Source of the DNA: Loxodes magnus
Lineage: Eukaryota > Ciliophora > Karyorelictea > Loxodida > Loxodidae
NCBI GenBank assembly: GCA_946699065.1
Contig: CAMPDV010000114.1
Coordinates: 124,001 to 188,000 of the forward strand
Reading direction: 5' to 3'
DNA length: 64,000 nucleotides
Translations under genes and position numbers: made by a program
The notes under the pieces: generated by a model
The model's database searches: none
What the model was told of the DNA's origin: nothing
The model's input: only the letters and a program-made list of their open reading frames with translations
In this document: positions 1-63,947 of the stretch, in pieces
How positions within the stretch are numbered: position 1 is the first letter of the stretch
Layout: every line of letters starts with the position of its first letter

Positions 1-1897
1 TTCTAGGTATTTACCTATGGATTAAAAAAACTGACTGATATATAATTATATAATTGATGATTTTATAATTACAGCTATAATAGGAATTAGATATAAATAG
101 CTGATAAAATAAAAGCTTAAATGCTTTATCTAAATTTATATTTTTAATATCTATAGAAAAATAATTATAAAAGTGCTATAATTTATTAATTATTAACTAT
201 TCTAATATTAATAATTTATATATTTCTTATATTCTACTACTATAAATCTATCTAGTGTGAATCTGCTATATTAGAGCATAATAGAATAATTATTTCAATT
301 TATTACATTTAGTTTCTAAATGGACATCTCAGTAAATTTTACATATTAGACAATAATGAAAAAAATTATAAGGTGATTTCCTAATACTTTAAATATTTGT
401 GAAGCTTACAGTTCTTCAATTAAAAATAGTAAGAGTATAATAATATTTAGATTATACTTGCTTAGTTATATACTAAAGCATTTCAATTATTACTATTTAT
501 ATACCAATCTATAAAAATCCTTTTTTCTTCTAATTTTTTAATCTGAATTTTCTAGCTTAAAATGGAGATTGTCTAAAGGCGAAAATAATATAGAATAGCT
601 TAAAAGATTATTATATGGTTTAAATATTAGATAGATGCTTTAGTATAACATTTATCTAAATGCTTTAGAAACTTCATTCTGAACTTGTAAAATTTGATTG
701 AATGAAATATTAGATTTTTCAATTTAAAGTTACAAAAGTAAAAGTGAACCACCAGTAAATAAAAATTTGCTTAGTTAAATTTTATGATAAGGTCCTTACT
801 GATAGAATTAATATAGCAGTTAAGAATCTATTTTAAAGAGATTTAGTACTGCTAAAGAACCTACTTTAATTTTTCTCTTACTTAATTTAACTTAGATAAC
901 TAAAAGGAAATTAAAAAATAGTTTTTAATGCTTAAGCTAAGGATAAATAAGTTCTTTAAGCAAGGCTATTAGATCATAATATTGAATTAAAAGTTAAAAG
1001 TTTAATTTAAATCTAAATTATCATAAATTTTTAATGTTATTTAAGTTATTATTTGCCTTAAAATATGAAGGGAAAATTATTACTTAGTTAGAAATTAGAT
1101 TAAAAGCTCATTTGAAATATGGGAAAATAAAATAATTTTCATTACTGAAGCTGCGATAAAAATTGCATTCAGATTACTAAAATCATTTAATTAGACTATT
1201 TAGCTTTTAATAATAAAAAGAATATAAAAGCCAGTTATTAAAAGTATAATAAATAAAGTCAACTATTATTTCAGTCTTTCAAACAAATAAACTAAAGATG
1301 CAGCTCTATAAAATCTCTTATAATGATAAAATTATCTTTGGTGATATATAAAAGAACTAACTATTTGAAATATTTCGATAAGAAAAATGACTTTATGTTA
1401 AAATAAACAGACTAATAATATATATAACTTATGACCAGAAATTAATAGCAAAACTTCCAAGTAGTCACTTATATTTTGGAAATTGAATAAAATAACGTAA
1501 AATAATTTCATTTATAATTGAATAAATAATCACTTTATCCTTTTTAATAATCAATTTGCTATTTTAAAATGAGAAGTTATTAATAAAAATTATGATAAAG
1601 CATTTCATTTTACTTATAAAATCATATGGCATAGTTACTTGAAATTTTAATTTAATTAGTTTACTTTTTATCATTAATATCTTACAAAAATAAAATATCT
1701 AAAGCTATTAATAATGCATAGTGATTCTAACAAAGTATTAGTATAATACTATTAAGTTATGATTAAATAAGGTTTATGCAAGTAATAAATAGTCCATTAT
1801 TAAATTTTTGCTGGGAATCTAATTATTTTTTATATACAGTTGGTAAATAATCTTAAAAACGGGTTTATTTAAAGGTTTCATCTAAATATTAATAAAA
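1..1897. other. intergenic, no gene recognised
   Basis: Very AT-rich DNA with no stretch showing coding composition in any frame under the TGA-only-stop code. Short AAGCTT/AGCTTA-type words are frequent, as in the other spacers. Confidence 0.5.
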
Positions 1898-2718
1898 ATG
1901 AATTAAGGCGAATATAAAAATTTTTGCAAAACAAGGACGTAAAACCTAGAACAAGTCGTATCGACCATGCTTACATAGGATTAGAGTCAGCAGTTGGCAT
2001 TCAGAGAAGTTTATAAGTAGTAGGTTGAGTAAAGTGCATTCATAGTGAAATAAATCACCTTCTACTAAGCGAAAGCAGCTTAGAATATAATTTCACATTA
2101 TCTGTAAAACAAAAAAATTCAGGAGCTCTTTAATGAAGAAAACTTTTAAGTAACAGTGTCTAATATAACTACGTTTACCTACAAATATTTAAATAAAAAT
2201 TACAATTTGAATAAAGAAAACTAAGTAAGATTTTATTTTAGGAGTAAATTCTTTAAAACAAGATGAATATGATCCTGGAAAACTTAGCTTACCAAGCATT
2301 CAAGGAGCAATTAAAGAGTTTAGACGTCTTTAAAAGTGATGATGTTGACAGAGACTTGGAAGATAAACTGATAGAAATTTTAATTAACTAGGATCAAAAA
2401 GAAAAATAGAAGTTAAAAGAGCAAATAAAATAACTTCATTTTTTAAGAGCTTCTTAATTAGAAAAAATGCAAAATAATCCTCCAAAGCTGAGAATAAAAG
2501 AAAGTACAATTTGTAAACGCAGAATCTTGGAAACCACAATAGGAAAAGCTAATTAAAAGAATTTTAGACAGAATTAGAAATTAAACTTGTGACAGTCAGA
2601 AGAAAACTAGAAATTTACCATAAGTGCCTAATTAGTTTTCTTCACAATTTTTCTCCTTTTCATCCTTTACTCCACAATTTACTTTGTATTTCCCAGACAA
2701 ATAGAAGACTTTATCTGA
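1898..2718 (+). CDS. single-pass membrane protein, unknown function
   Basis: A 267-aa product (TAA/TAG = Gln, one internal TGA = Trp) starts at the first ATG of the frame and ends at TGA. One 17-nt GT-AG intron is needed to join the two exons. Residues 1-200 are rich in Gln, Lys, Glu and Asn and look helical or coiled-coil (for example QAFKEQLKSLDVFKSD). Near the C-terminus a hydrophobic run (LVFFTIFLLFILYSTIYFVF) forms one membrane segment, followed by a short charged tail. The shape resembles a tail-anchored or SNARE/tether-like protein, but I do not recognise the family. If the final TGA were read as Trp the frame would continue about 5 codons to another TGA. Confidence 0.72.
2225..2241 (+). 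other. 17-nt spliceosomal intron
   Basis: GTAAGATTTTATTTTAG lies between two in-phase codons. Removing it joins two coding frames that are otherwise offset by two bases. Confidence 0.75.
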
Positions 2719-3736
2719 AGTTAAAGACGATGATTATAAAACTCCTATATTGTATTTTAATGTAAATAATGTTAAATCTAATTCCTTTTTAAGTTATTAA
2801 TTTTAACTAAATCGATAAAAGCAAAAAGAGACAACTTAACTAAATAAAATTAATTAAACGAGATAGAAATAAATCTAAGAAATTAAAATAGTAATTCAAA
2901 GAAACTTAATATCTAAATATTGACAATTAAAATTAATTTAAATAGCTATCTTATGCTTTATGAAAAATAAGTCCCTAATTTAGAAAAATTGTTTATTTTA
3001 ATAATTAATTCTAATATTACAAATTTTAATTTCAATATTAATTAGTACAGACTTAAAACAATTATTTTGCTGCTTAAAATAAAGATTGGATTTTTATATT
3101 AGTGATTCTAGTGTAAATTGAGTAATTGAGTATTTAAAATGCTTTACTTAGACTATTTTATTCATAGTTTATTATAAAAGATAAAATAAATTTGTTTTGC
3201 ACTCTAATATATTTAGTGTTGCAAATCACTTAAATATATAGGAAATAAAGAGTTATGCTATATTAAGTTAAGAATAAAAAATAAATATGAAATTAGTAAG
3301 AAATTCATATACTTTAATAGTTAAAAAAGCTCAAAATTGACATATCAATATAATTAATAATCTAGAGTTGATACTTACTAACCTTAAAATGAGTAAATTT
3401 ACAAATAACTAATAGGCGTTACTGAAAAATTAAAAGTAGTTATTTATTTATTTATTTAAATTAAGCCACTTTAAATAGAAATATTTTAAATAAGTTATAA
3501 AGTCACTAATTACTTTATTAAATTAAAAGTATTAGAGTAAAAAAATTTATATTTGGGTTATGCTTTTACCACTAAAAGCTTATAATTATTAGGTTTGATT
3601 ATGTTTGCATATCTTTTTGTGCATTAAAGTATTCAAAATAAATATTTCTTCTAGCTTTGAAGATCTTATTTCTTATAAATTGTAAATAAATATTTAAATT
3701 TAATTAAGTAATAAACTGAAAAATTAAAAGTTTGAA
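2719..3736. other. intergenic, no gene recognised
   Basis: AT-rich spacer between two plus-strand genes. It contains a short TATT tetranucleotide run near 3441-3458. I see no coding signal. Confidence 0.5.
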
Positions 3737-4645
3737 ATGAAATGCTATGTAGTTAGAAAATTTTGTTGCTGCTTTCCATTTAGGTATGGGGTTGCTATCA
3801 TAACGACTATAGATATTATTGTTGTTCTATTGTGTATTTTGAGTCTTATTCTAATTTATGACAAGCAAACTTTTTTATTATCGCTCATTCTGCTAATAAT
3901 TCAAGCCTTTTATGCTCTTATATGTATTGCTTTGAAGAAAGGAAGTGTCAAATGAAAGTTTTATTATGTATATAGCTTTTTGAAATTTATTATCCATAGC
4001 ATAATTATGGTAATATTGCTTAGTTTTTAGGTAATAAATATCAAGTGAATATAAGAACTTCTCTGTTGCTTGCTCTGAATATTCTAAACATATTGCGCTA
4101 TTACTTTATACTCTTATTCGACTTTTAATATGAATGGTCATTGATTATTCTCATGTCTATCCTTTACTAGTAGTTAAAATATTTAAGAACAGCAAAATAT
4201 TGAAAATAACACAGAATCTATTCTTAATTATTTTGAAAGAACGCGTACTTCTCAATAATAAATACTAAACTTTTAGCAATCAAATAACTTATAGAGAGGC
4301 TTATCCAAAAATCAAATTGATAAACTAGCTATAATATCAATTGACGAAACTAAAATACTCATTAGCGAGTAAAGTGACTCTATATGTACAATTTGTCTTT
4401 GTAAATTTTAAGTCAAGGACCTAATTAGAAAACTGAAATGCATGCATTAGTTTCATAAGCAATGTGTCGATATCTGGTTAAAAATGAATATGAAATGCCC
4501 ATTGTGTAGAATCGATTAGTTGTAAAGATTGCTTTTATTTATTCTAACTTATATAAATATAATCAATAAGAAAGAAGTTATTAGTAAATCATTTAACCAA
4601 CGAATGGTGTAGTAGTTTTCTTTTTTACTTTACTTATAAAAATGA
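3737..4645 (+). CDS. multi-TM RING-H2 E3 ubiquitin ligase-like protein
   Basis: A 302-aa product with five internal TGA codons read as Trp. The N-terminal half is strongly hydrophobic: two adjacent segments (VAIITTIDIIVVLLCILSLI and FLLSLILLIIQAFYALICIA), then about two weaker ones, suggesting a 4-TM anchor. After a Gln/Asn-rich linker comes a complete RING-H2 finger from about residue 217: C-T-I-C, then C-M-H-Q-F-H-K-Q-C, then C-P-L-C. This is the C3H2C3 cross-brace of RING-H2 ubiquitin ligases. The family predicts membrane-associated ubiquitylation; substrate and membrane are unknown. A conventional ORF stops at the first TGA, codon 73, and misses the RING. The stop TGA overlaps an ATG (ATGA) that opens the frame of the next gene. 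Confidence 0.88.
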
Positions 4646-11955: not shown

Positions 11956-13047
11956 TCATAAAATCAACTCTTTTTCTACCGGTTCAAAGTATTCCATATA
12001 CTCGTCTTTTGTTACTTCTTTCAGACTTGAATGCTTCCATTTTGGCTTTTTATCTTTGTCCACAAGAAAAGCTCTAACACCTTCAAAGAAATCGGCTCCT
12101 TTCATGAAATGCTAGGACATTCTATATTCCATTGAGAAAGCGTCTTTTAAAGGTAATTATTTTCCTCTCGAAAGCTACTCAAAAACTACTTTTAGGGAAA
12201 GAGGACTGACTGTATTAAGACTCTTGAGTGTTTGCTCGCACCAACTACAATTTTCTTACTTAGATTTAAGACTTTCAAATATTTCTTCAACACTTTTTGC
12301 GTTTTCAAAATGCTCTTTAATTTTTTCTATAAACTTATATGGTTTATCTATCTTCTAACAAAATTTGGATATTTTATCTGAGTACTTCTATCTGTTACTA
12401 AATTCATTAGTTTCGTTGTGAACTATTACTTCTAATAAATTTAATTTCTCTTAGTCTACATAGCAATTAGCTAGTCCCAATCTTACAAGATCTTCTCCTT
12501 GTATTCTTGCTCCTGTTAAGCCCATGAAAAGTCCAATTCCATTAGGTAGTTTACTAAGGAAATAGCTACCACCAACATCAGGGAAGAATCCTATTGCAGT
12601 TTCTGGCATTGCCAGCACACTGTTCTACGTTGCTACGATGTGCGAAGAATTCATTGAAATTCCACAGCCACCTCCCATTACAATTCCGTTCCAGATAGAG
12701 ACTTAAATAGGATTCATTATAGCCAAGGCATAATCAAGTTAATATTCAAACCAGAAGAAATCAGAAAGAATATTATTATTTTTTCCAGTGATTTTAGCAT
12801 CATAAAGAGAGCGAATATCACCACCCGCACAAAATGCCTTATCACCTATGCCACGTACTGTGACCACTCTAATATCAGAGTTATTCCACTTCTGCAATTC
12901 TGGTAGTCACATTTGTATCATATCAAGATTAAGTGCGTTCAACGCCTTAGGTCTATTTAATACAACTTCTACACTCTTATTCTTATGAGTAATTAGCACT
13001 GGTAAATCTTTAGAGCTCATTAGGCGTATGAACTTGCGTATCATCAT
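11956..13047 (-). CDS. HIBCH: 3-hydroxyisobutyryl-CoA hydrolase, mitochondrial
   Basis: A 363-aa intronless product, about the usual HIBCH length. HIBCH hydrolyses 3-hydroxyisobutyryl-CoA in mitochondrial valine catabolism and belongs to the crotonase superfamily. Visible hallmarks in order: [15 protein letters not shown]; the CoA-binding oxyanion segment [26 protein letters not shown]; the catalytic [20 protein letters not shown] block typical of [22 protein letters not shown]; and the HIBCH-specific C-terminal part [19 protein letters not shown]. The N-terminus [12 protein letters not shown] is short, basic and plausibly mitochondrial-targeting; Met2 and Met10 are alternative starts. One Trp is TGA, several Gln are TAA/TAG, and the stop is TGA. 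This gene anchors the genetic-code reading. Confidence 0.96.
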
Positions 13048-33499: not shown

Positions 33500-34405
33500 T
33501 CAATACGAGCAGTCTTTGAGTTGGTCTAAAATACTATTTCCGTGATATATATAACTAAAACCTCTAAGTCTCTCTTCTTTATCAACTTCTGATGATCTTT
33601 AATTATATGCTCTCTCAAACTTATTCCCGCAGATTCTTCCACTTGCATTTATACTAAGGAGAGGATTTCTAATTATAGCAGGTGAATAAGTTAGTTTAGT
33701 AATCTACATGCCGGGCTTATAATATTCAGGGTTAATTATTGGATCTCTTACACAGGAAAGAATATTCTTCTTCTTTTAAGGTTCTTTTTTGAAAGTTCCA
33801 TCAAGTATTTTTTCTTCCATATACTTCTTCATCTGCTTTTATTCTTCTAAGCCTTTTTCAAATCTTTTTTTTCCAAAATAGCTATTAACATATGAAAAGT
33901 TCAAAACAACACAAGCCAATATACCAAATAAAGTGATAAATATACCTGATTCAAATATTGCATCTCTTTATGCTTGTTTATCCTTTTCTTCATTCTACTT
34001 TTTATAGTGTTCCGATGCTTCATTCCACTTAGGATCATAGGTGTAAGTTTCTTTAATGTCTTAGTATCATTTTGAATCTTAATTAGCTGGATCAGAATAG
34101 GTTTGATCAGAATAGGTTTTATTAGTGAAGCCTTCTTTTTTATTTTACAGCCAGCGATCATATTATTTTCTCTTAGTTTCGTCTCCAATAATCTAATAAG
34201 CTTCATTCACTTGCTTAAATTTATCAACGTTCCCTCCACAGTCTGGATGATGCTCTAGAGAAAGTTTGAAATATTTCTTTTTTATTTAATCTAAAGTAGC
34301 AGTGCTATTAATGTCTAAGATTTAGTAGCAAGTTTTTCCTTCGAAGATTTGAGAGTTGTACTCAGAAAAGCATCTAAGAAATTGACTTTTAGAGACTCTG
34401 AACAT
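33500..34405 (-). CDS. membrane-anchored DnaJ (Hsp40) protein
   Basis: A 301-aa intronless product. The N-terminus (MFRVSKSQFLRCFSEYNSQ) is short and basic/hydroxylated, plausibly mitochondrial-targeting. Residues 25-85 are a J domain: CYQILDINSTATLDQIKKKY, FKLSLEHHPDCGGN with the HPD tripeptide at 53-55, then EAYQIIGDETKRKQYDRW. A Tyr/Asp/Gln-rich linker follows, then one transmembrane helix at about 153-173 (GIFITLFGILACVVLNFSYV) and a Lys-rich, non-membrane C-terminus ending LDQLKDCSY-TGA. The J domain stimulates an Hsp70 ATPase, and the anchor places it at a membrane (mitochondrial inner membrane or ER). There is no Gly/Phe region or zinc finger, so it is a class III J protein. Confidence 0.93.
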
Positions 34406-34487
34406 TTTAATTTCACTATATTATATTATCAAATTTACTTATCCAATTAATTAAAATGTGTAAACGTGTCTTTAATTCCACTATAAA

Positions 34488-34652
34488 TCATGATGCCCTT
34501 CTATCTAGCTAATATGTAAATGCATCTTCAGCAACTATACAACCAATACTGGTATAAAATGAGGGTTATAAGCTTCCTGCTTTTTAAAATTGATAATTAG
34601 AGATTCTTTGTTAGCTTAGAATGCATGAAGTTAGTAAAATAAATAAATACAT
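34488..34652 (-). CDS. small secreted peptide (signal peptide)
   Basis: A 54-aa product starting MYLFILLTSCILSQQRIS, a good signal peptide, followed by a short polar body (FQKAGSLQPSFYTSIGCIVA, then EDAFTYQLDRRAS) and TGA. Reading that TGA as Trp extends the protein by 25 residues (WFIVELKTRLHI...) to a second TGA only 7 bp before the DnaJ start, and the extension also looks protein-like. It is therefore a genuine case of TGA ambiguity. No family was recognised. Confidence 0.45.
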
Positions 34653-56335: not shown

Positions 56336-59300
56336 TCAGAATTTTTTCCCTTCAACACATAACTCGCAATATATCATAAAGAAATCAAAGTTACAGTAAA
56401 ACTTTCTAAATTAAAATGCCTTTCCACAGTCCTAGCATGTTACTACGCTATCTAAGTCTCCATTCTTCTTTCTTTCTTCAAGGATTTGATTAACAGTAAT
56501 TTTGTCAATATTAAAATAAGAAAATAAATGATTTTGACAAAAATATTAATTGCACTGCTGACAAAATCAATATATATCTTTATCTGCTAAGTTACACTAA
56601 GAACATATCATATCATTATTATTTTCTTTCATTTTAGCTTTTAGCATATTTTAGCATAAACTACATAAAAAAAATTCGTTGTAGCAATTTTTTAGTCTGA
56701 ATCCTTTTTATTCCATCAAATCATATGTAATTTGATTAACATTTTTAACTAAGCCATATGAATTTCAAAGCTAGAAAAATCCCAAGGTTCCAATACTAAA
56801 CTTTAACTTTAGCTTGTTCTATTATATTTAAAAAATTCAAATAGGAGATATATTTTAGGAATATAAATATTAATTTTACTTACTCCATCTTAAATAAACA
56901 AATTCTTCCTGAGTAAAACAAAAGAAATCTTCATAAGTAACAGTAAACTAGTCTTAATCAAGAATTTAGCTTTACTACTGTTAATTGCTAGAATTAGCTA
57001 TTTATTAAAAATTTATCAACTTTACTTTTTTATTCTTTCTATTATCAAAGCCTGAAATAACAAGTATATTTGTTTCATCAATAGTTTAGATATAGCCAAT
57101 GTAGTCATCTACTAATAATCTTCAAATATTTTCTTAATTATCAATATTTTAGATTATTATATAGCTATCTTCTGCATAAATGAAGAAATAATTAGTCATA
57201 TCAAACTCGTAAAAGTAGTTAATAGCTTGCTTTTTATTAATTTGATGCTTTTGTGTTTAAGTTATTAGTTTACTATTTTATACCTTTATCTGTGCTAAAT
57301 CCATTTTTTGTAATTCAAACTCTAAAATTTCTTGTTGAGATCTTTAATTTTAAAGTGCTACAGTCTAATTTCTCCATTGAAATACATGTAAAGGAGATAA
57401 TAATGGAATATCATTCCATCAAATTTCATTAGTAAGAGGCTACCAGTGAAATAGGAAATGATTTTAAAGATTTTATTCTCTAATGTAGTAGAAAAATATT
57501 CCATTCTCATTTTCTAAAACTTCAACTTTGGTAAATTCAGGCATAAAGAACTGGAAGCTTTTATATTGAGTCTCTTGTAGCTAATATTGATATAATTTAA
57601 AACTTGTTGTATCTAAATAAATGAGATTGAATTTGCAGATTATAACAAGATTATTTCTTATAAACTGTAAGTAAGCAAAACTATCAGAATCTTCTCTTAT
57701 TTTAATCCATATTTTGGAAAGAATAGTTCCGTTCTTTTTTAAAATTATCAATTTCAAAACAGTCTTTAATTATGTTTTTTCTATTTCATAGAAAGCAAAA
57801 AGCTATAGATCACTAGAAAATGAATACATTTTATTATTCTTTTTGAATTCTGAATGTAGTTAGTTTATTGCATTTTTCTAATGCATTAGCATTTTCAAAT
57901 TTGTTACTTATAATTCGCGATTTTCTTCAGAAGCCATTCAAATTTCTTCGTTACTTGCACTTCAATTGAGTGCAGATGCTTTTTAAAGTATTAAATCTCC
58001 AGTTTAAATACTAATTACCATTAATTTTTGAAAATTGCAAGTAATTAAAAGCTTTTCGTTACTCCATAAGGGCATTTAATTAGCAAAATAAGCTTCAACT
58101 CTTTATTTGATTTATAAGTTATGAATAGTGATATATTCTTTATTTAATACAGCTATCTAATTTTAGTCTATTATTTACACATAATTAATTTTTCCTTATT
58201 CTACTTCATAGTCTATTAGGTTGGATTGATTTCTTCTGTTACTAAGAAGAATTTACTCGTTTTTATTTTCAAATCCAATTAAGATTAAATTGAAATCTCC
58301 ACACTATCCAAAGTATCTTACATCTCCTTCTTGATATTTTTCGACTTTAAATTCCTCTAACTTTTAGTTAAGTTCTTGATCAATTCTAAGAATTTAGAAA
58401 ATTCCATTTTATATTTATTAATTTATGATTGAGACTCCTTCCTCATATTAAACTAAGCTGCTGTTGTAGTACTTTTTATCTTTAATCTTTTAATAATTTT
58501 GAATATTTCATTGCTTATATAAAGATTGAGGCTATTTTTGGATAATTTGTAGTTGAACTTCCTACTCTTTTAGTTGATCGAACTTTTCGCCTAAAAACTT
58601 GAATAACTTAAAATTATCCCTTTACATCTTACAAAGAACAATAATGCTTTAGTCCTAATCTCCTAAAATCTTAGCTCCCATAATTTATTTTACACCTTAG
58701 ATTTTTCTTTCTTGGCTTAGAACTTCTATCAGTTAATAATTTTCTTTAGATTCTATTATTTTTTAAATTTTCTGTATTTTTATTTTGTTTTACTAGAAAT
58801 CCTGTGTCATTAAACTGCTTGATATGACAGTAAGAAGATCATTATGAAGCTTAAAATCCTCGATGAAATTAAGTCAATTGATAGTTTTTTACTCTTTAGA
58901 AGAAAAAGTGGTTCCTTCAAAATTAACATCATTTAGATCAGTTTCTTTCATATAAATATTTTGCATTTTACAGTTTTTTATGATGCTTTTGTTAAGTTTG
59001 CATCTTACAAATATTCCATTACATAAATCTGCATTCTCTATTACTAGATTCTATAAATCCTCATCTATGAACTAATGGCCAGCTTTCACTAGAATAGTAA
59101 AGGCATTTGAACTTGCTACTTTGTATTCTTCATTATTTTATGATAATTTAATACAAAGCAATAGTTGCTGGACTAAATCTTAGTATACTTTCTCTGACTA
59201 GCTTTAAAGTAATCCTACACAAAAGTCAATAACTTAAGGATTATCGTAAATAGGAATCCTTTTGAAGTTTTCATTGCTTACCTGATATTTTCCTTCAAGC

Positions 59301-61717
59301 ATTGCATCATTTTTCTATTAATCCTTAAGTTCCAGCTCGAAAAGATTCATGCATTGGAAAAACTCGAAAATACTTCTATGAATCCAATTATTAGTAGCGC
59401 TTTGATCCTCTTAAAATTGGAATTATAGAGGAAGAGCTCTCTAAATAGATAGCTTCTATTAATCTTCTTAAACATGGTTGTTAATAATTTAGTTAATTTG
59501 CTTTATTTGAAATGTTCCTTAGGTATTTTTCTTCTCAATACTCTGTTCTAAGCAAAGTTCTTTGCAAATAGTAAATAGTAAGTTAATAAAGCTATTACAG
59601 AACTCTGTATACCACCCTTTTGAGCTGAATTACTTAACATACTTTCTTTATTTTTTAAACATTTCAAAAAGGAAAGAGTTATATATTTTAAATAAGCTTC
59701 ATTCTTCTCCTTAAACTGTTACATTTTCATATTACTAATTCCTTTATTTTATCTTTGCTAGTAATTAAGTTACTTAAAACAGAACAAAAGGATTTTAAAT
59801 AACCTCTGATAGATTAGCATGCTTTTATATTATTTCATAGCATTAAAGCCCTGAATCTACCTATAGTTGCTTCTAAAGATTTTGATTAACCTACATTATT
59901 TTAGAAAAATACTCTATTATCATATTTTAGTCAAATGGCTATATGTAAATTATTTTTAAGTATTTGTCTATTCTCTTTCCTTACATCACTGGCTAAAACT
60001 TATGTTTTCAGTATGGATCTTATATCAACTATTAGTATCTAGAAGTAGTTATTACTTTTGCTTAAGGATACTATACAAATATGTCTTTTACTATGTCAGC
60101 CTTTTCCTATGTTTCATCATATCCATCTAATATAAATATAATTTGACTATCATCCAGTTTAGTTAGCTCTTATTTTAAACCCTTTAGATTTTCTTTATTT
60201 AGATAGGCTTGTATTGGATCTACATCTCTTGAGTAGCATAAATTGATTAAGAATGGAATTTATTTTCTACTTTTTAGTAGCTCATCATAAATTTTGTAAG
60301 ATAGAGTTGTCTTTCCACTACCTGAATCACCTAAAACAAGTAAATGCCTTGGTTAGCTTGATAATGATGTAGATTAAAAGTTAGGATCAGGCTCTAAGAA
60401 TTTTAGAATTTCTTAAAGAATATCTCTTTAATCTTAAGTTTATTAGTAAATAGTATCTGAGCATTTAATAGGCACTAAATGTTAGCTTTTTAATATTTAA
60501 GATCTTATATAATTATCTTTGAATTGCTCGTAACCTTGACGCAATCTCTCTTATTAATTCAAATATTCCAGAAGCTATAAATCAAAGCCTTTTAATTAAC
60601 TAAAGGATCATTAATCTAAATAGAACTATTATTTTGTTAGTATTTCCTATATTGCTTATTCTATCTGTTAATTTGATTATAGCTCTTCTATTAATTCTTA
60701 AACCTTTTTATTTCCTTTATTCTACAAAAGGCATCAAATAAAATTTTGCCTAATCCTCCATTTAGAGCTATAATTTTTATTAAGAGGATAGAAATCTAAA
60801 TAGATTACAGATTAAAGGCCTTTGAAGTTTTAGTTTCCAAATACAATTTCTTATAAAATACTATCATCTTAACTAATTTTTGCCGCTCTGAAAAGACATT
60901 AAAGGGAATATTATTTAATCTTCCAAGATTAGTGGTTTAAGAATAAATACTACATTAACTGTATAATATCTCTAGGATTCTATTATTAAACGCTATATCT
61001 TTTTTACAATTTCAGTCTTTACACCATTAAGTCTAAAGTAAATATTTCATTCACTAAATCTTTTTTCTATGAATTTAAGTCTAAAATGTTTTGCTAACTG
61101 TTTAGAAAATTTAAAGTAGCTTCTTAGTTTTTATTATACTTAATCCTATAAAGAATTATTGCCTTTTCTTTTAACTAATCACTAAAATCTCCTTAGTTGG
61201 TCGAATTTAGAATATTTTGAATAATATCAGTCTCTAGCTATAAGCCATAATCAAATATTCTCAATTTATCATTGCTTAAAGTTTTTTGAATATTCTTAAT
61301 AGTTTGGCTTTGCTCAAATTTATTATAAGCTTATAGATCTTTTTCTTTTTTTAAAAGAGCTACCAGCAAAATTCTACAGAAACAAGCTAAGTGTTTTAGT
61401 TCAGCCATAAAATTATTTGTGTCATTTCTTTCAATGAAAACCTTATTCATAGTCTCAATCAAATTTTTAATTATGGATTACGAAGCTTAAATTGATGCTA
61501 GTTGTTATTTCTAAAGTTAAATCCTTAAGCTTCTTAATTTCTATTAGTTTTCATTTTAAGAAGCTAATTTTATTTAATCCCCTAATTTTGAAACTTCATT
61601 ATCATCTTTATCTTAAACCCCAAATCCATTGCTTTAAGGTCTAAATTTTGCCTGTTCATAATTTTAATTTTAATTTTACTTTTTCTTTTTCTTGAAGCAA
61701 GGGCATTAGCTACCCAT
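56336..61717 (-). CDS. NLR-like NACHT NTPase with lipid anchor, pentapeptide repeats, propeller and zinc module
   Basis: A 1793-aa product in one uninterrupted exon. The N-terminus MGSQCPCFKKKKK has Gly2 for myristoylation, Cys5/Cys7 for palmitoylation and a polybasic patch. Residues 15-450 are helical and Gln-rich. The NACHT/STAND ATPase has Walker A GDSGSGKTT (463-471), Walker B with the NACHT acidic pattern IIFILDGYDE (526-535) and the sensor TTSR (557-560). Helical winged-helix/superhelical sequence follows, including a GWYTEFCNSFINLLFTICKE block. Residues 896-940 are nine pentapeptide repeats (ADLCN, GIFVR, CKLNK ... TDLND, VNFEG). A long beta-rich, propeller-like region spans about 1060-1680. 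The Cys-rich C-terminus has CSLC, CSQC, CQQC-x3-FC-x2-H, CQDC and CELC and ends at TGA. STAND NTPases oligomerise on ligand sensing; here signalling is probably at a membrane. Ligand and output are unknown. Confidence 0.9.
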
Positions 61718-63306: not shown

Positions 63307-63594
63307 ATGGAAAGTTATTAATGTTCTATCTGTATTGATAAAGCTTAAGATCCAGTAGTAGCTTCTTGTGGACATCTATTTTGCTAGCTTTGTATTGATA
63401 GATGATTGGAAACCAATCGTACTTGTCCAGATTGCAGATGCAGTATATAAAGCATTATAAAGATAGGAGGTACCACTAATAATATCAAAATAATTCAAGA
63501 AAGTTATGGAACTAAAAATATAGTTAGAGATTTGTTCCTTTGGGTTGGTATAATAATAACTTGCTACTTCTTTTATATGGCTTTATTTTTGTGA
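63307..63594 (+). CDS. RNF5/RMA1-like RING protein with C-terminal TM
   Basis: A 95-aa product. A compact C3HC4 RING starts almost at the N-terminus: MESYQCSICIDKAQDPVVAS, then CGHLFCQLCIDRWLE and TCPDC. A short linker follows, then a C-terminal transmembrane helix (LFLWVGIIITCYFFYMALFL) and TGA. The RING-then-C-terminal-anchor layout is that of RNF5/RNF185/RMA1 ER-membrane ubiquitin ligases used in ER-associated degradation, though this protein is shorter and has one membrane helix rather than two. Trp in the D-R-W-L-E motif is encoded by TGA. Confidence 0.9.
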
Positions 63595-63947
63595 CTTGAA
63601 CCTACTTTAATTAATTTGGTTAAAAGAAAATTATAAGTGTCTTAAGTTTCTAATATAAGAAGTTCTTTCTATAATATTTTAAAAATCATTCAAGCACATA
63701 AAGCATCATATTTAAAATGATCTTAATGATTACTAAACTTCACACAATTTTTATTCAGATTTAAGTATCTTTTTTATAAAATCTTTATAGTCAAAGCTTA
63801 ATGAAAGCTTTTGATTAAATTTCTTGTTTTAAAATAAATTTTTTAAGTATAAATGTTTAGATACACTATACTTGATAAATTTAGTTATATATAAAATTCA
63901 TACTAAAGCTTTAATACAACTTATATACAATCTAAACTTAGATAAAG
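63595..63947. other. intergenic, no gene recognised
   Basis: AT-rich spacer between two plus-strand genes; nothing seen. Confidence 0.5.

What the first reader, a model, noticed from the sequence alone, without database searches (positions are those of the whole stretch)
56336..61717. A ciliate NLR-like protein: lipid-anchored NACHT + pentapeptide + propeller + zinc module
One intronless 1793-aa gene combines MGSQCPCFKKKKK (dual acylation plus polybasic), a complete NACHT ATPase, nine pentapeptide repeats, a long propeller-like region and a multi-CxxC terminus. STAND/NACHT proteins in animals, fungi and bacteria mediate immunity or self/non-self recognition. This domain combination in a ciliate with a myristoylated anchor is not one I know, and it could be an undescribed membrane-proximal sensing system.
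Basis: partly seen in the sequence, partly recalled or inferred. Interest (0 to 1): 0.9.

Follow-up and report, generated by a model that had tools for sequence, protein, structure and literature searches.

The report
Lipid-anchored NLR-like protein in Loxodes
A single-celled ciliate carries a large family of genes built like the NLR immune-sensor proteins of plants, animals, fungi and bacteria, and most of those compared start with what looks like a fatty membrane anchor; what they do in the ciliate has not been tested.

Summary
The gene is real: minus strand, 61717 to 56336, 1793 aa in the karyorelict code (table 27). The assembly's size matches the published Loxodes magnus somatic genome. 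NACHT and pentapeptide domains are confirmed by profiles. The 730-aa "propeller" has no Pfam match, but its profile scores above all 200 shuffles against WD40 arrays. The tail has near-invariant zinc-type ligands. It is not a lone oddity: of 18 family genes compared, 15 begin MG, 14 of these with Cys at 3-7. The core order (NACHT, pentapeptide, propeller) is known from Mortierella fungi and their bacterial endosymbionts. Lineage features are the acyl-type start, another helical N-terminal domain, the degenerate propeller and the zinc tail. New here: paralogues are mosaics; the window gene is 99.8% identical over 3.3 kb to an inverted copy 22 kb away, but 56% before codon ~400. The genome also holds at least 100 loci of a sister NACHT branch; the four read carry HNWD-like WD40 arrays, most variable at three of the four positions under selection in Podospora. 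Best reading: a membrane-tethered STAND sensor in an NLR-like repertoire. Function is inferred, not shown.

The parts
56336..61717 (-). whole gene, 1793 aa plus stop TGA at 56336-56338, karyorelict code (TAA/TAG=Q, TGA=W or stop)
61679..61717 (-). residues 1-13, MGSQCPCFKKKKK: N-myristoylation / S-acylation type motif plus Lys run
   Evidence: sequence; MG start in 15 of 18 family genes compared
60593..61585 (-). residues 45-375, all-helical N-terminal domain in a low-confidence model; weakly HEAT/ARM-like in other members; absent from the short paralogues
60508..60526 (-). codons about 398-404: switch from 56% to 99.8% nucleotide identity with the inverted paralogue (mosaic boundary)
59918..60367 (-). 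residues 451-600, NACHT NTPase core
   Evidence: 2.5e-6; 13 of 13
60305..60331 (-). residues 463-471, Walker A GDSGSGKTT
   Evidence: near-invariant in family
60113..60136 (-). residues 528-535, Walker B FILDGYDE
   Evidence: near-invariant in family
59078..59917 (-). residues 601-880, helical / winged-helix region with conserved W778-x-H780 (NACHT winged-helix His motif; the role is recalled)
58883..59047 (-). residues 891-945, pentapeptide repeats (beta-helix)
56693..58882 (-). residues 946-1675, beta-rich region, divergent propeller by profile comparison only
56339..56692 (-). residues 1676-1793, zinc-type module: C1685, C1705xxC1708, C1719xxC1722, C1727xxH1730, C1761xxC1764, C1784xxC1787

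Best explanation
The gene encodes a STAND-class NACHT protein of an expanded NLR-like family in Loxodes magnus. Most likely it is tethered to the cytosolic face of a membrane through N-myristoylation at Gly2 and S-acylation of Cys5/Cys7, helped by the Lys run. The C-terminal divergent propeller (with pentapeptide rod and zinc tail) keeps the NACHT switch closed and binds a cue. Binding allows ADP/ATP exchange and oligomerisation, which clusters the helical N-terminal domains at the membrane to signal. The repertoire diversifies by gene-conversion-like exchange, in which the anchor/helical module and the NACHT-propeller body can be shuffled separately. Shown: gene, family, conserved NTPase motifs, conserved N-terminal motif, domain order, mosaic structure in the assembly. 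Inferred: acylation, oligomerisation, ligand sensing, and a role in recognition of microbes or non-self.
For: NACHT in 13 of 13 members with near-invariant Walker A/B, sensor-1-like ITT and winged-helix His motifs. Of 18 genes surveyed, 15 have an in-frame MG start 37-62 codons upstream of the first conserved block; 0 of the 24 other in-frame Met in those stretches are followed by Gly (my count); Gly is 3.0% of residues. The genes are related, so these are not 15 independent events. External relatives are NACHT-pentapeptide-WD40 proteins, called NOD-like receptors in print. Mosaic identity between paralogues. Large repertoire: 148 NACHT matches and 100 of 100 scored candidates of a sister branch, whose WD40 units in the four genes read vary most at positions 25, 7, 9, 6 (27 is ninth), against 7, 9, 25, 27 under positive selection in Podospora HNWD. 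In plants, mutating the acylation sites of PML5, RPS5, L3 or L5 abolishes cell-death activity (PMC11467418, passages).
Against: No functional, expression or localisation data. dN/dS is below 1 in every region with more than 5 synonymous differences, propeller included (12 pairs), except a 39-codon N-terminal tail in L021/L022 (1.75; the same tail gives 0.64 in L022/L023), so classical diversifying selection of the sensor is not seen in this branch. No high-identity internal repeats in the window gene. Four of 20 sequences start MQ(E/Q)N and L003 starts MCC. The window start MGSQCP lacks the Ser/Thr of the M-G-X-X-X-S/T consensus quoted. The propeller model is not confident, and no effector fold was identified for the N-terminal domain.
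Confidence: 0.5

Rival explanations
1. A non-immune membrane scaffold or trafficking switch: the same STAND chemistry anchored at cortex, phagosome or extrusome membranes, expanded in Loxodes for cell-biological reasons.
For: Purifying selection dominates; zinc ligands and the pentapeptide region are conserved across paralogues; a NACHT protein required for protein secretion is reported in a fungus (PMC13311144, start of abstract in the listing).
Against: Repertoire size and a sister branch with HNWD-like arrays; mosaic exchange between paralogues.
Confidence: 0.28
2. Conspecific self/non-self or mating-related recognition rather than defence, as for fungal HET-E/HNWD.
For: The sister branch has tandem 42-aa WD40 units, most variable at or next to the HNWD specificity positions.
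Against: Ciliates do not fuse hyphae (recalled); no polymorphism data between strains; the window gene itself lacks such repeats.
Confidence: 0.12
3. The near-identity to the inverted copy is an assembly or polishing artefact and the family is less mosaic than it looks.
For: The assembly is repeat-rich and the difference between the two published assembly sizes is put down to misassembly of low-complexity repeats (PMC11441545, passages); some loci are near-identical including flanks, probably haplotigs (L014/L018 99.3% over 8 kb); L010 carries a frameshift. Only the window/L010 set has a sharp edge just before NACHT; the other two sets change more gradually on at least one side.
Against: Three sets of paralogues show different high-identity tracts, while their flanks stay mostly at 32-55% in two sets and 27-83% in the third (L021/L022).
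Confidence: 0.1
4. The MG-Cys N-terminus is not lipid-modified and the protein is soluble.
For: Purely a sequence motif; the window protein has Pro at position 6 where the consensus quoted has Ser/Thr; one MG member (L020) has no nearby Cys.
Against: 15 of 18 genes share the start, in otherwise poorly conserved sequence.
Confidence: 0.15

Closest known systems
NACHT-PPR-WD40 NOD-like receptors of Mortierellomycota and Mycoavidus/Glomeribacter endosymbionts (PMC11291939; P0002-P0018 here)
   Same: order NACHT, helical region, pentapeptide repeats, propeller; best profile match 2.5e-49, mapped to residues about 450-940
   Different: P0005 and P0004 have clear WD40 arrays, and P0005 an ARM_5 N-terminus, to which the Loxodes N-terminal profile gave no match; none of the 8 relatives printed with a start begins MG; Loxodes rows form one separate clade, 100/100
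Acylated plant CC-NLRs (RPS5/PML5 group, PMC11467418)
   Same: N-terminal Gly/Cys acylation sites on a STAND receptor; there needed for cell death and proper localisation
   Different: NB-ARC/LRR proteins with coiled-coil effector (recalled in part); no homology shown beyond the STAND class; resemblance taken as convergent
Podospora HET-E/HNWD family (PMC2873952)
   Same: NACHT followed by propeller; the four L. magnus sister-branch genes read have tandem, mostly similar WD40 units, most variable at similar positions
   Different: the window gene has no regular WD40 units; no HET domain match
C1_2 / AN1 / B-box type zinc fingers
   Same: spacing of Cys/His ligands; weak Pfam matches in 2-3 of 16 members each
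   Different: in the window's own tail none reaches a curated cut-off; the fold is not established

Membership tests
STAND / NACHT NTPase | NACHT profile match | tested here: met
   27.9 bits, cut-off 26.7; 13 of 13 members
STAND / NACHT NTPase | Walker A, D-G-x-D-E Walker B, sensor-1-like ITT strand, winged-helix His | tested here: met
   alignments and near-invariant columns; motif roles are recalled
NLR immune receptor | tripartite build: N-terminal effector, NACHT, C-terminal repeat sensor | tested here: inconclusive
   helical N-terminus without known effector fold; propeller by profile only
NLR immune receptor | triggers defence or cell death on recognition | not testable with these tools
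   no experiment or expression data
NACHT-PPR-WD40 family of Mortierellomycota/Mycoavidus | homologous NACHT-to-pentapeptide core | tested here: met
NACHT-PPR-WD40 family of Mortierellomycota/Mycoavidus | recognisable WD40 repeats | tested here: not met
   0 of 17 members hit a WD40 or propeller model up to E 10; only remote profile similarity
NACHT-PPR-WD40 family of Mortierellomycota/Mycoavidus | ARM_5 / NLR_Helical N-terminus | tested here: not met
   no profile match to the Mortierella N-terminus (P 0.14); HEAT-like at best in other members
HNWD (HET-E type) | tandem near-identical 42-aa WD40 units | tested here: not met
   window gene: no such repeats; met only in sister-branch genes
dual-acylated (myristoyl/palmitoyl) proteins | Met-Gly start with nearby Cys, conserved in the family | tested here: met
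   15 of 18 genes MG, 14 of those with Cys at 3-7; Ser/Thr at position 6 is missing in the window gene itself
dual-acylated (myristoyl/palmitoyl) proteins | actual lipid attachment | not testable with these tools
   needs labelling or mass spectrometry

The most novel reading that the evidence does not exclude
Loxodes magnus, a single-celled ciliate, has an innate recognition repertoire of well over a hundred NLR-like loci in two sister branches: a membrane-anchored branch with degenerate propeller and zinc tail (this gene), which recombines anchor modules with sensor bodies by gene conversion, and an HNWD-like branch with rapidly turning-over WD40 arrays. This would be an NLR system in a eukaryotic lineage where the paper searches made here found none described.
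Probability: 0.45. Interest if true: 0.92.

Novelty: new variant of a known kind. Interest (0 to 1): 0.78.

Why it matters
NLR-like repertoires are studied in plants, animals, fungi and bacteria. For ciliates, which engulf bacteria and can host endosymbionts, the paper searches here turned up no described gene family of this kind, only a pathway assignment of 14 transcripts to "NOD-like receptor signaling" in a rumen ciliate (PMC6925433, passage). A repertoire of this size, with a conserved acyl-type start and mosaic exchange between anchor and sensor modules, would let one ask in a single cell how such receptors diversify, and whether acylation of STAND receptors arose independently of plants. 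It also bears on where the NACHT-pentapeptide-propeller architecture comes from, since many of the relatives found are endosymbiotic bacteria or the fungi that house them.

Tried and rejected
Single-sequence PDB search gave only a P-loop match at 0.23; NCBIfam gave nothing useful. Profile search of PDB: pentapeptide proteins and two P-loop proteins for the core, nothing meaningful for the N-terminus (best 0.015, a LOV2-DARPin fusion), the tail (LapB 0.0065; Ubp8 and Upf1/NAM7 about 0.2) or the propeller (best 0.37). The A5 full-length search found one relative only. The two AlphaFold models had mean pLDDT 53 and 40; Foldseek with the first gave 0 matches at E 0.001 or better, so no fold claim rests on it; the second was not searched.

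N-terminal homology between the two Loxodes branches was tested and not supported (score 27.3; block-shuffled maximum of 40 runs 31.1). The sister-branch N-terminus against the Mortierella N-terminus scored 34.1 (P 0.0027) without a shuffle control and is left open. Internal repeat detection in the propeller by self-alignment gave nothing. Diversifying selection was looked for and, with the one exception told under evidence against, not found.

(rows 2-4) and 113 translated the wrong frame and their empty rows mean nothing; one search repeats rows 2-4 in frame. A first script for the repeats stopped on an error and was redone. Rows dropped: near-duplicates L015 and L044 from the 18-gene survey; L018 (frame change at its N-terminus) and L003 (start MCC) were not in that set, 45 of 61 candidate repeat units were kept, those in register; the tree used 19 of the 28 outside relatives held.
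Full report
What it is. The finding gives coordinates but no strand. The gene is on the minus strand; table 27 (TAA/TAG = Q, TGA = W or stop) turns 61717-56339 into 1793 residues beginning MGSQCPCFKKKKK. The window lies in a 705.7 Mb assembly of 7,843 contigs, contig C114:124001-188000; the published Loxodes magnus somatic (MAC) assembly is 706 Mbp and uses this context-dependent code (PMC11441545, passages read). That the organism is L. magnus is an inference from size and code; no record name is shown.

Is the reading frame real? Under this code no stop is absolute, so an open frame is weak evidence. Comparisons are better. Of 13 long paralogues, 11 align with the protein in a single frame from residue 9-57 to 1790-1792; L010 and L018 change frame. 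In the 19 genes whose ends I read (the window gene and 18 paralogues), the first TGA after the aligned end lies within 3 residues of a conserved (E/D)G(K/R/T), and the nearest coding TGA is at least 56 codons upstream, as expected from the depletion of coding TGAs before stops in this species. The gene is 25.4% GC, its 500-bp flanks 21.6% and 14.4%. "Intronless" is consistent with the alignments: the only residues with a counterpart in fewer than a fifth of the 18 other aligned sequences are 27-38, 427, 970-974 and 1170-1173. RNA was not available.

Domains. NACHT reaches its curated cut-off. In the family the P-loop, the FILDGYDE Walker B, the ITT sensor-1-like strand and W778-x-H780 in the winged-helix region are near-invariant (motif names and roles recalled). 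The pentapeptide stretch is sub-threshold in this protein, but 13 of 13 members match, the profile hits solved pentapeptide proteins, and two AlphaFold models give it pLDDT 80-91. Residues 946-1675 have no propeller or WD40 match in any of 17 members, at E up to 10. Compared as a profile with the WD40 region of 13 outside relatives they score 40.6; 200 column- or block-shuffled versions reach at most 26.6 and the reversed profile 18.9. Compared with the WD40 arrays of the Loxodes sister branch they score 33.3 against 22.4 for the best of 40 shuffles, over much the same stretch. AlphaFold makes the region all-beta but without confidence (pLDDT 22-50), and its alignment contained WD40 proteins, so that model is not independent. 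I therefore call it a divergent propeller by remote homology, not a demonstrated one. The tail has near-invariant ligands C1685, C1705xxC, C1719xxC, C1727xxH, C1761xxC, C1784xxC; 2-3 of 16 members touch C1_2, AN1 or B-box models weakly. The N-terminal 45-375 region is helical in a low-confidence model; 8 of 11 members hit Vac14_Fab1_bd and 6 of 11 HEAT_2, all weakly (best 3.9e-4 and 0.0076); the window's own domain hits neither.

The anchor. The first 50 residues are otherwise the least conserved part, yet of 18 genes surveyed 15 start MG, 37-62 codons before the first conserved block. Of the 24 other in-frame Met codons within 150 codons upstream of that block in the 18 genes, none is followed by Gly (my count), and Gly makes up 3.0% of family residues. 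Fourteen of the 15 have Cys within residues 3-7, and eight of the 15 start MGCG. The genes are relatives, so these are not independent events. Three of the 18 (L024, L039, L040) start MQ(E/Q)N and lack both anchor and N-terminal domain; three other short genes (L021-L023) lack the domain but keep the MG start. One further member, L003, starts MCC. This is conservation of a motif, not proof of lipid; the window gene has Pro, not Ser/Thr, at position 6. Plant NLRs offer a precedent: 21 Arabidopsis CC-NLRs carry putative sites, and mutating them in PML5 abolishes cell-death activity (PMC11467418, passages read).

The family. A full-length search of the genome scored 26 of 801 candidates and returned 26 related loci, counting the window gene; a second query added two. 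With the window's NACHT alone there are 148 matches (147 of 433 candidates scored); 66 of the 148 score above 66 bits, some of them two pieces of one gene, and the rest lie at or below 65 bits (my count). Four of the lower-scoring loci were fetched (L045-L048), and all four belong to a sister branch: a helical-looking N-terminus, a NACHT (clear by profile comparison, though 23.9 bits and below Pfam's cut-off in L045), a pentapeptide-like stretch (by eye), then 14, 11, 14 and 14 WD40 stretches by Pfam (L045; L046-L048). Querying with that branch, 100 of 100 scored candidates (1,339 at first look) match at E 1e-140 or better over 380 or more of 420 residues, so 100 is a floor set by the tool. 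These are assembly loci; haplotigs inflate them (for example L014/L018, 99.3% over 8 kb with flanks).

The sister branch looks HNWD-like. In L045 the WD40 array is 13.7 copies of a 126-bp unit. Of 61 candidate units in the four genes 45 were in register; median nucleotide identity between units is 0.88, 0.65, 0.79 and 0.89. Pooled, the most variable of 42 positions are 25, 7, 9 and 6; 27 is ninth. In Podospora hnwd genes positions 7, 9, 25 and 27 of each unit are under positive selection at the binding surface (PMC2873952, passages read). My register was set on the GH of the unit and the paper's numbering was not checked letter by letter, but the 2-16-2 steps (7, 9, 25, 27) agree. These four genes begin MK(L/M)KGGGC(G/C)S(A/T)K, so no Gly2.

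Mosaics. The nearest relative of the window gene is an inverted copy on the same contig, 5' ends about 22 kb apart. Nucleotide identity is 46% in 300 bp before the start, 56% over gene positions 1-1150, then 3,293 of 3,301 identical from 1250 to 4550, then 46 differences up to the stop, and 47% after it. Synonymous divergence falls from about 1.7 in the N-terminal domain to about 0-0.01 in NACHT, pentapeptides and the first part of the propeller. The L010 N-terminus is no closer to any other member read (37% at most) than to the window gene (40%). Another set shows the reverse: L013 and L014 are 100% identical over codons 60-400 and 59-89% from codon 910 on; L021 and L022 differ at the front and agree behind. 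This is what gene conversion or modular exchange would give; raw reads are needed to exclude assembly artefacts. The copy L010 has lost its frame near the end.

Against an arms-race reading of this branch: in 12 pairs dN/dS is below 1 in every region with more than 5 synonymous differences, except a 39-codon N-terminal tail in L021/L022 (1.75; L022/L023 give 0.64 there), and the window gene has no near-identical repeats.

Outside relatives. The single-sequence search of 5.8 billion proteins found one (Glomeribacter, 4.9e-20). The profile of 13 members found 27: 17 named as Mortierella-group fungi, one Tatlockia, one lancelet, eight without an organism name (my count); not all have pentapeptides or WD40 repeats. 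The full-length profile found one. No row that carries an organism name is from a ciliate, but the method needs shared words and cut its candidate lists, so absence elsewhere is not shown. In a tree of the core, 16 Loxodes rows form one side with 100/100 support against 19 others; the tool warned of long branches, and rooting and direction of transfer are open. Searches of open-access papers for NACHT or NLR with ciliate terms showed no description of such genes (listings only, apart from one passage in PMC6925433 that assigns 14 rumen-ciliate transcripts to a NOD-like pathway), and the L. magnus genome paper has no "NACHT" in its main text.

Verdict. A genuine member of the NACHT/STAND class and a new variant of the NACHT-pentapeptide-propeller architecture, with an acyl-type start, its own helical domain and a zinc tail, in a large, mosaic family. 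The working model (membrane-tethered, nucleotide-gated sensor) fits the anatomy; immunity is the likeliest use but unproven.

Noticed in passing
L045-L048 (G000:C932, C66, C203, C366); one search list: Sister branch of at least 100 NACHT loci; the four read have a pentapeptide-like stretch and tandem 42-aa WD40 units, HNWD-like, with N-termini MK(L/M)KGGGC(G/C)S(A/T)K.
   Followed up: partly
L004 (G000:C24:779397-779726): A NACHT/nSTAND1 locus preceded in frame by a CHAT (caspase-like) domain, Pfam 1e-6, above cut-off: a possible protease-STAND protein in the same ciliate.
   Followed up: no
L007 (G000:C10:523980-524459): A locus matching NB-ARC (3.6e-14) better than NACHT; L008 has a similar P-loop stretch.
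   Followed up: no
L010 / L043 (G000:C114, about 207565-212950): Inverted paralogue of the window gene with a frameshift near codon 1560; pseudogene or assembly error not decided.
   Followed up: partly
window 63307-63600 (+): Small RING-finger protein (Pfam zf-C3HC4 1.2e-12) followed by a hydrophobic stretch, 1.6 kb upstream of the gene in divergent orientation; resembles RNF5/RNF185-type ligases (recalled).
   Followed up: partly
L003 (G000:C16:1333766): Distant family member with NACHT and pentapeptides starting MCCESRP instead of MG, perhaps S-acylated only.
   Followed up: partly
L049 (G000:C102:290563): Another family locus with the long N-terminal domain upstream of its P-loop; contig C102 holds several further NACHT pieces.
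   Followed up: no
window 11956-12717 (-): ORF resembling 3-hydroxyisobutyryl-CoA hydrolase / enoyl-CoA hydratase (by eye).
   Followed up: no
window 34067-34525 (-): ORF with a DnaJ-like stretch (by eye).
   Followed up: no
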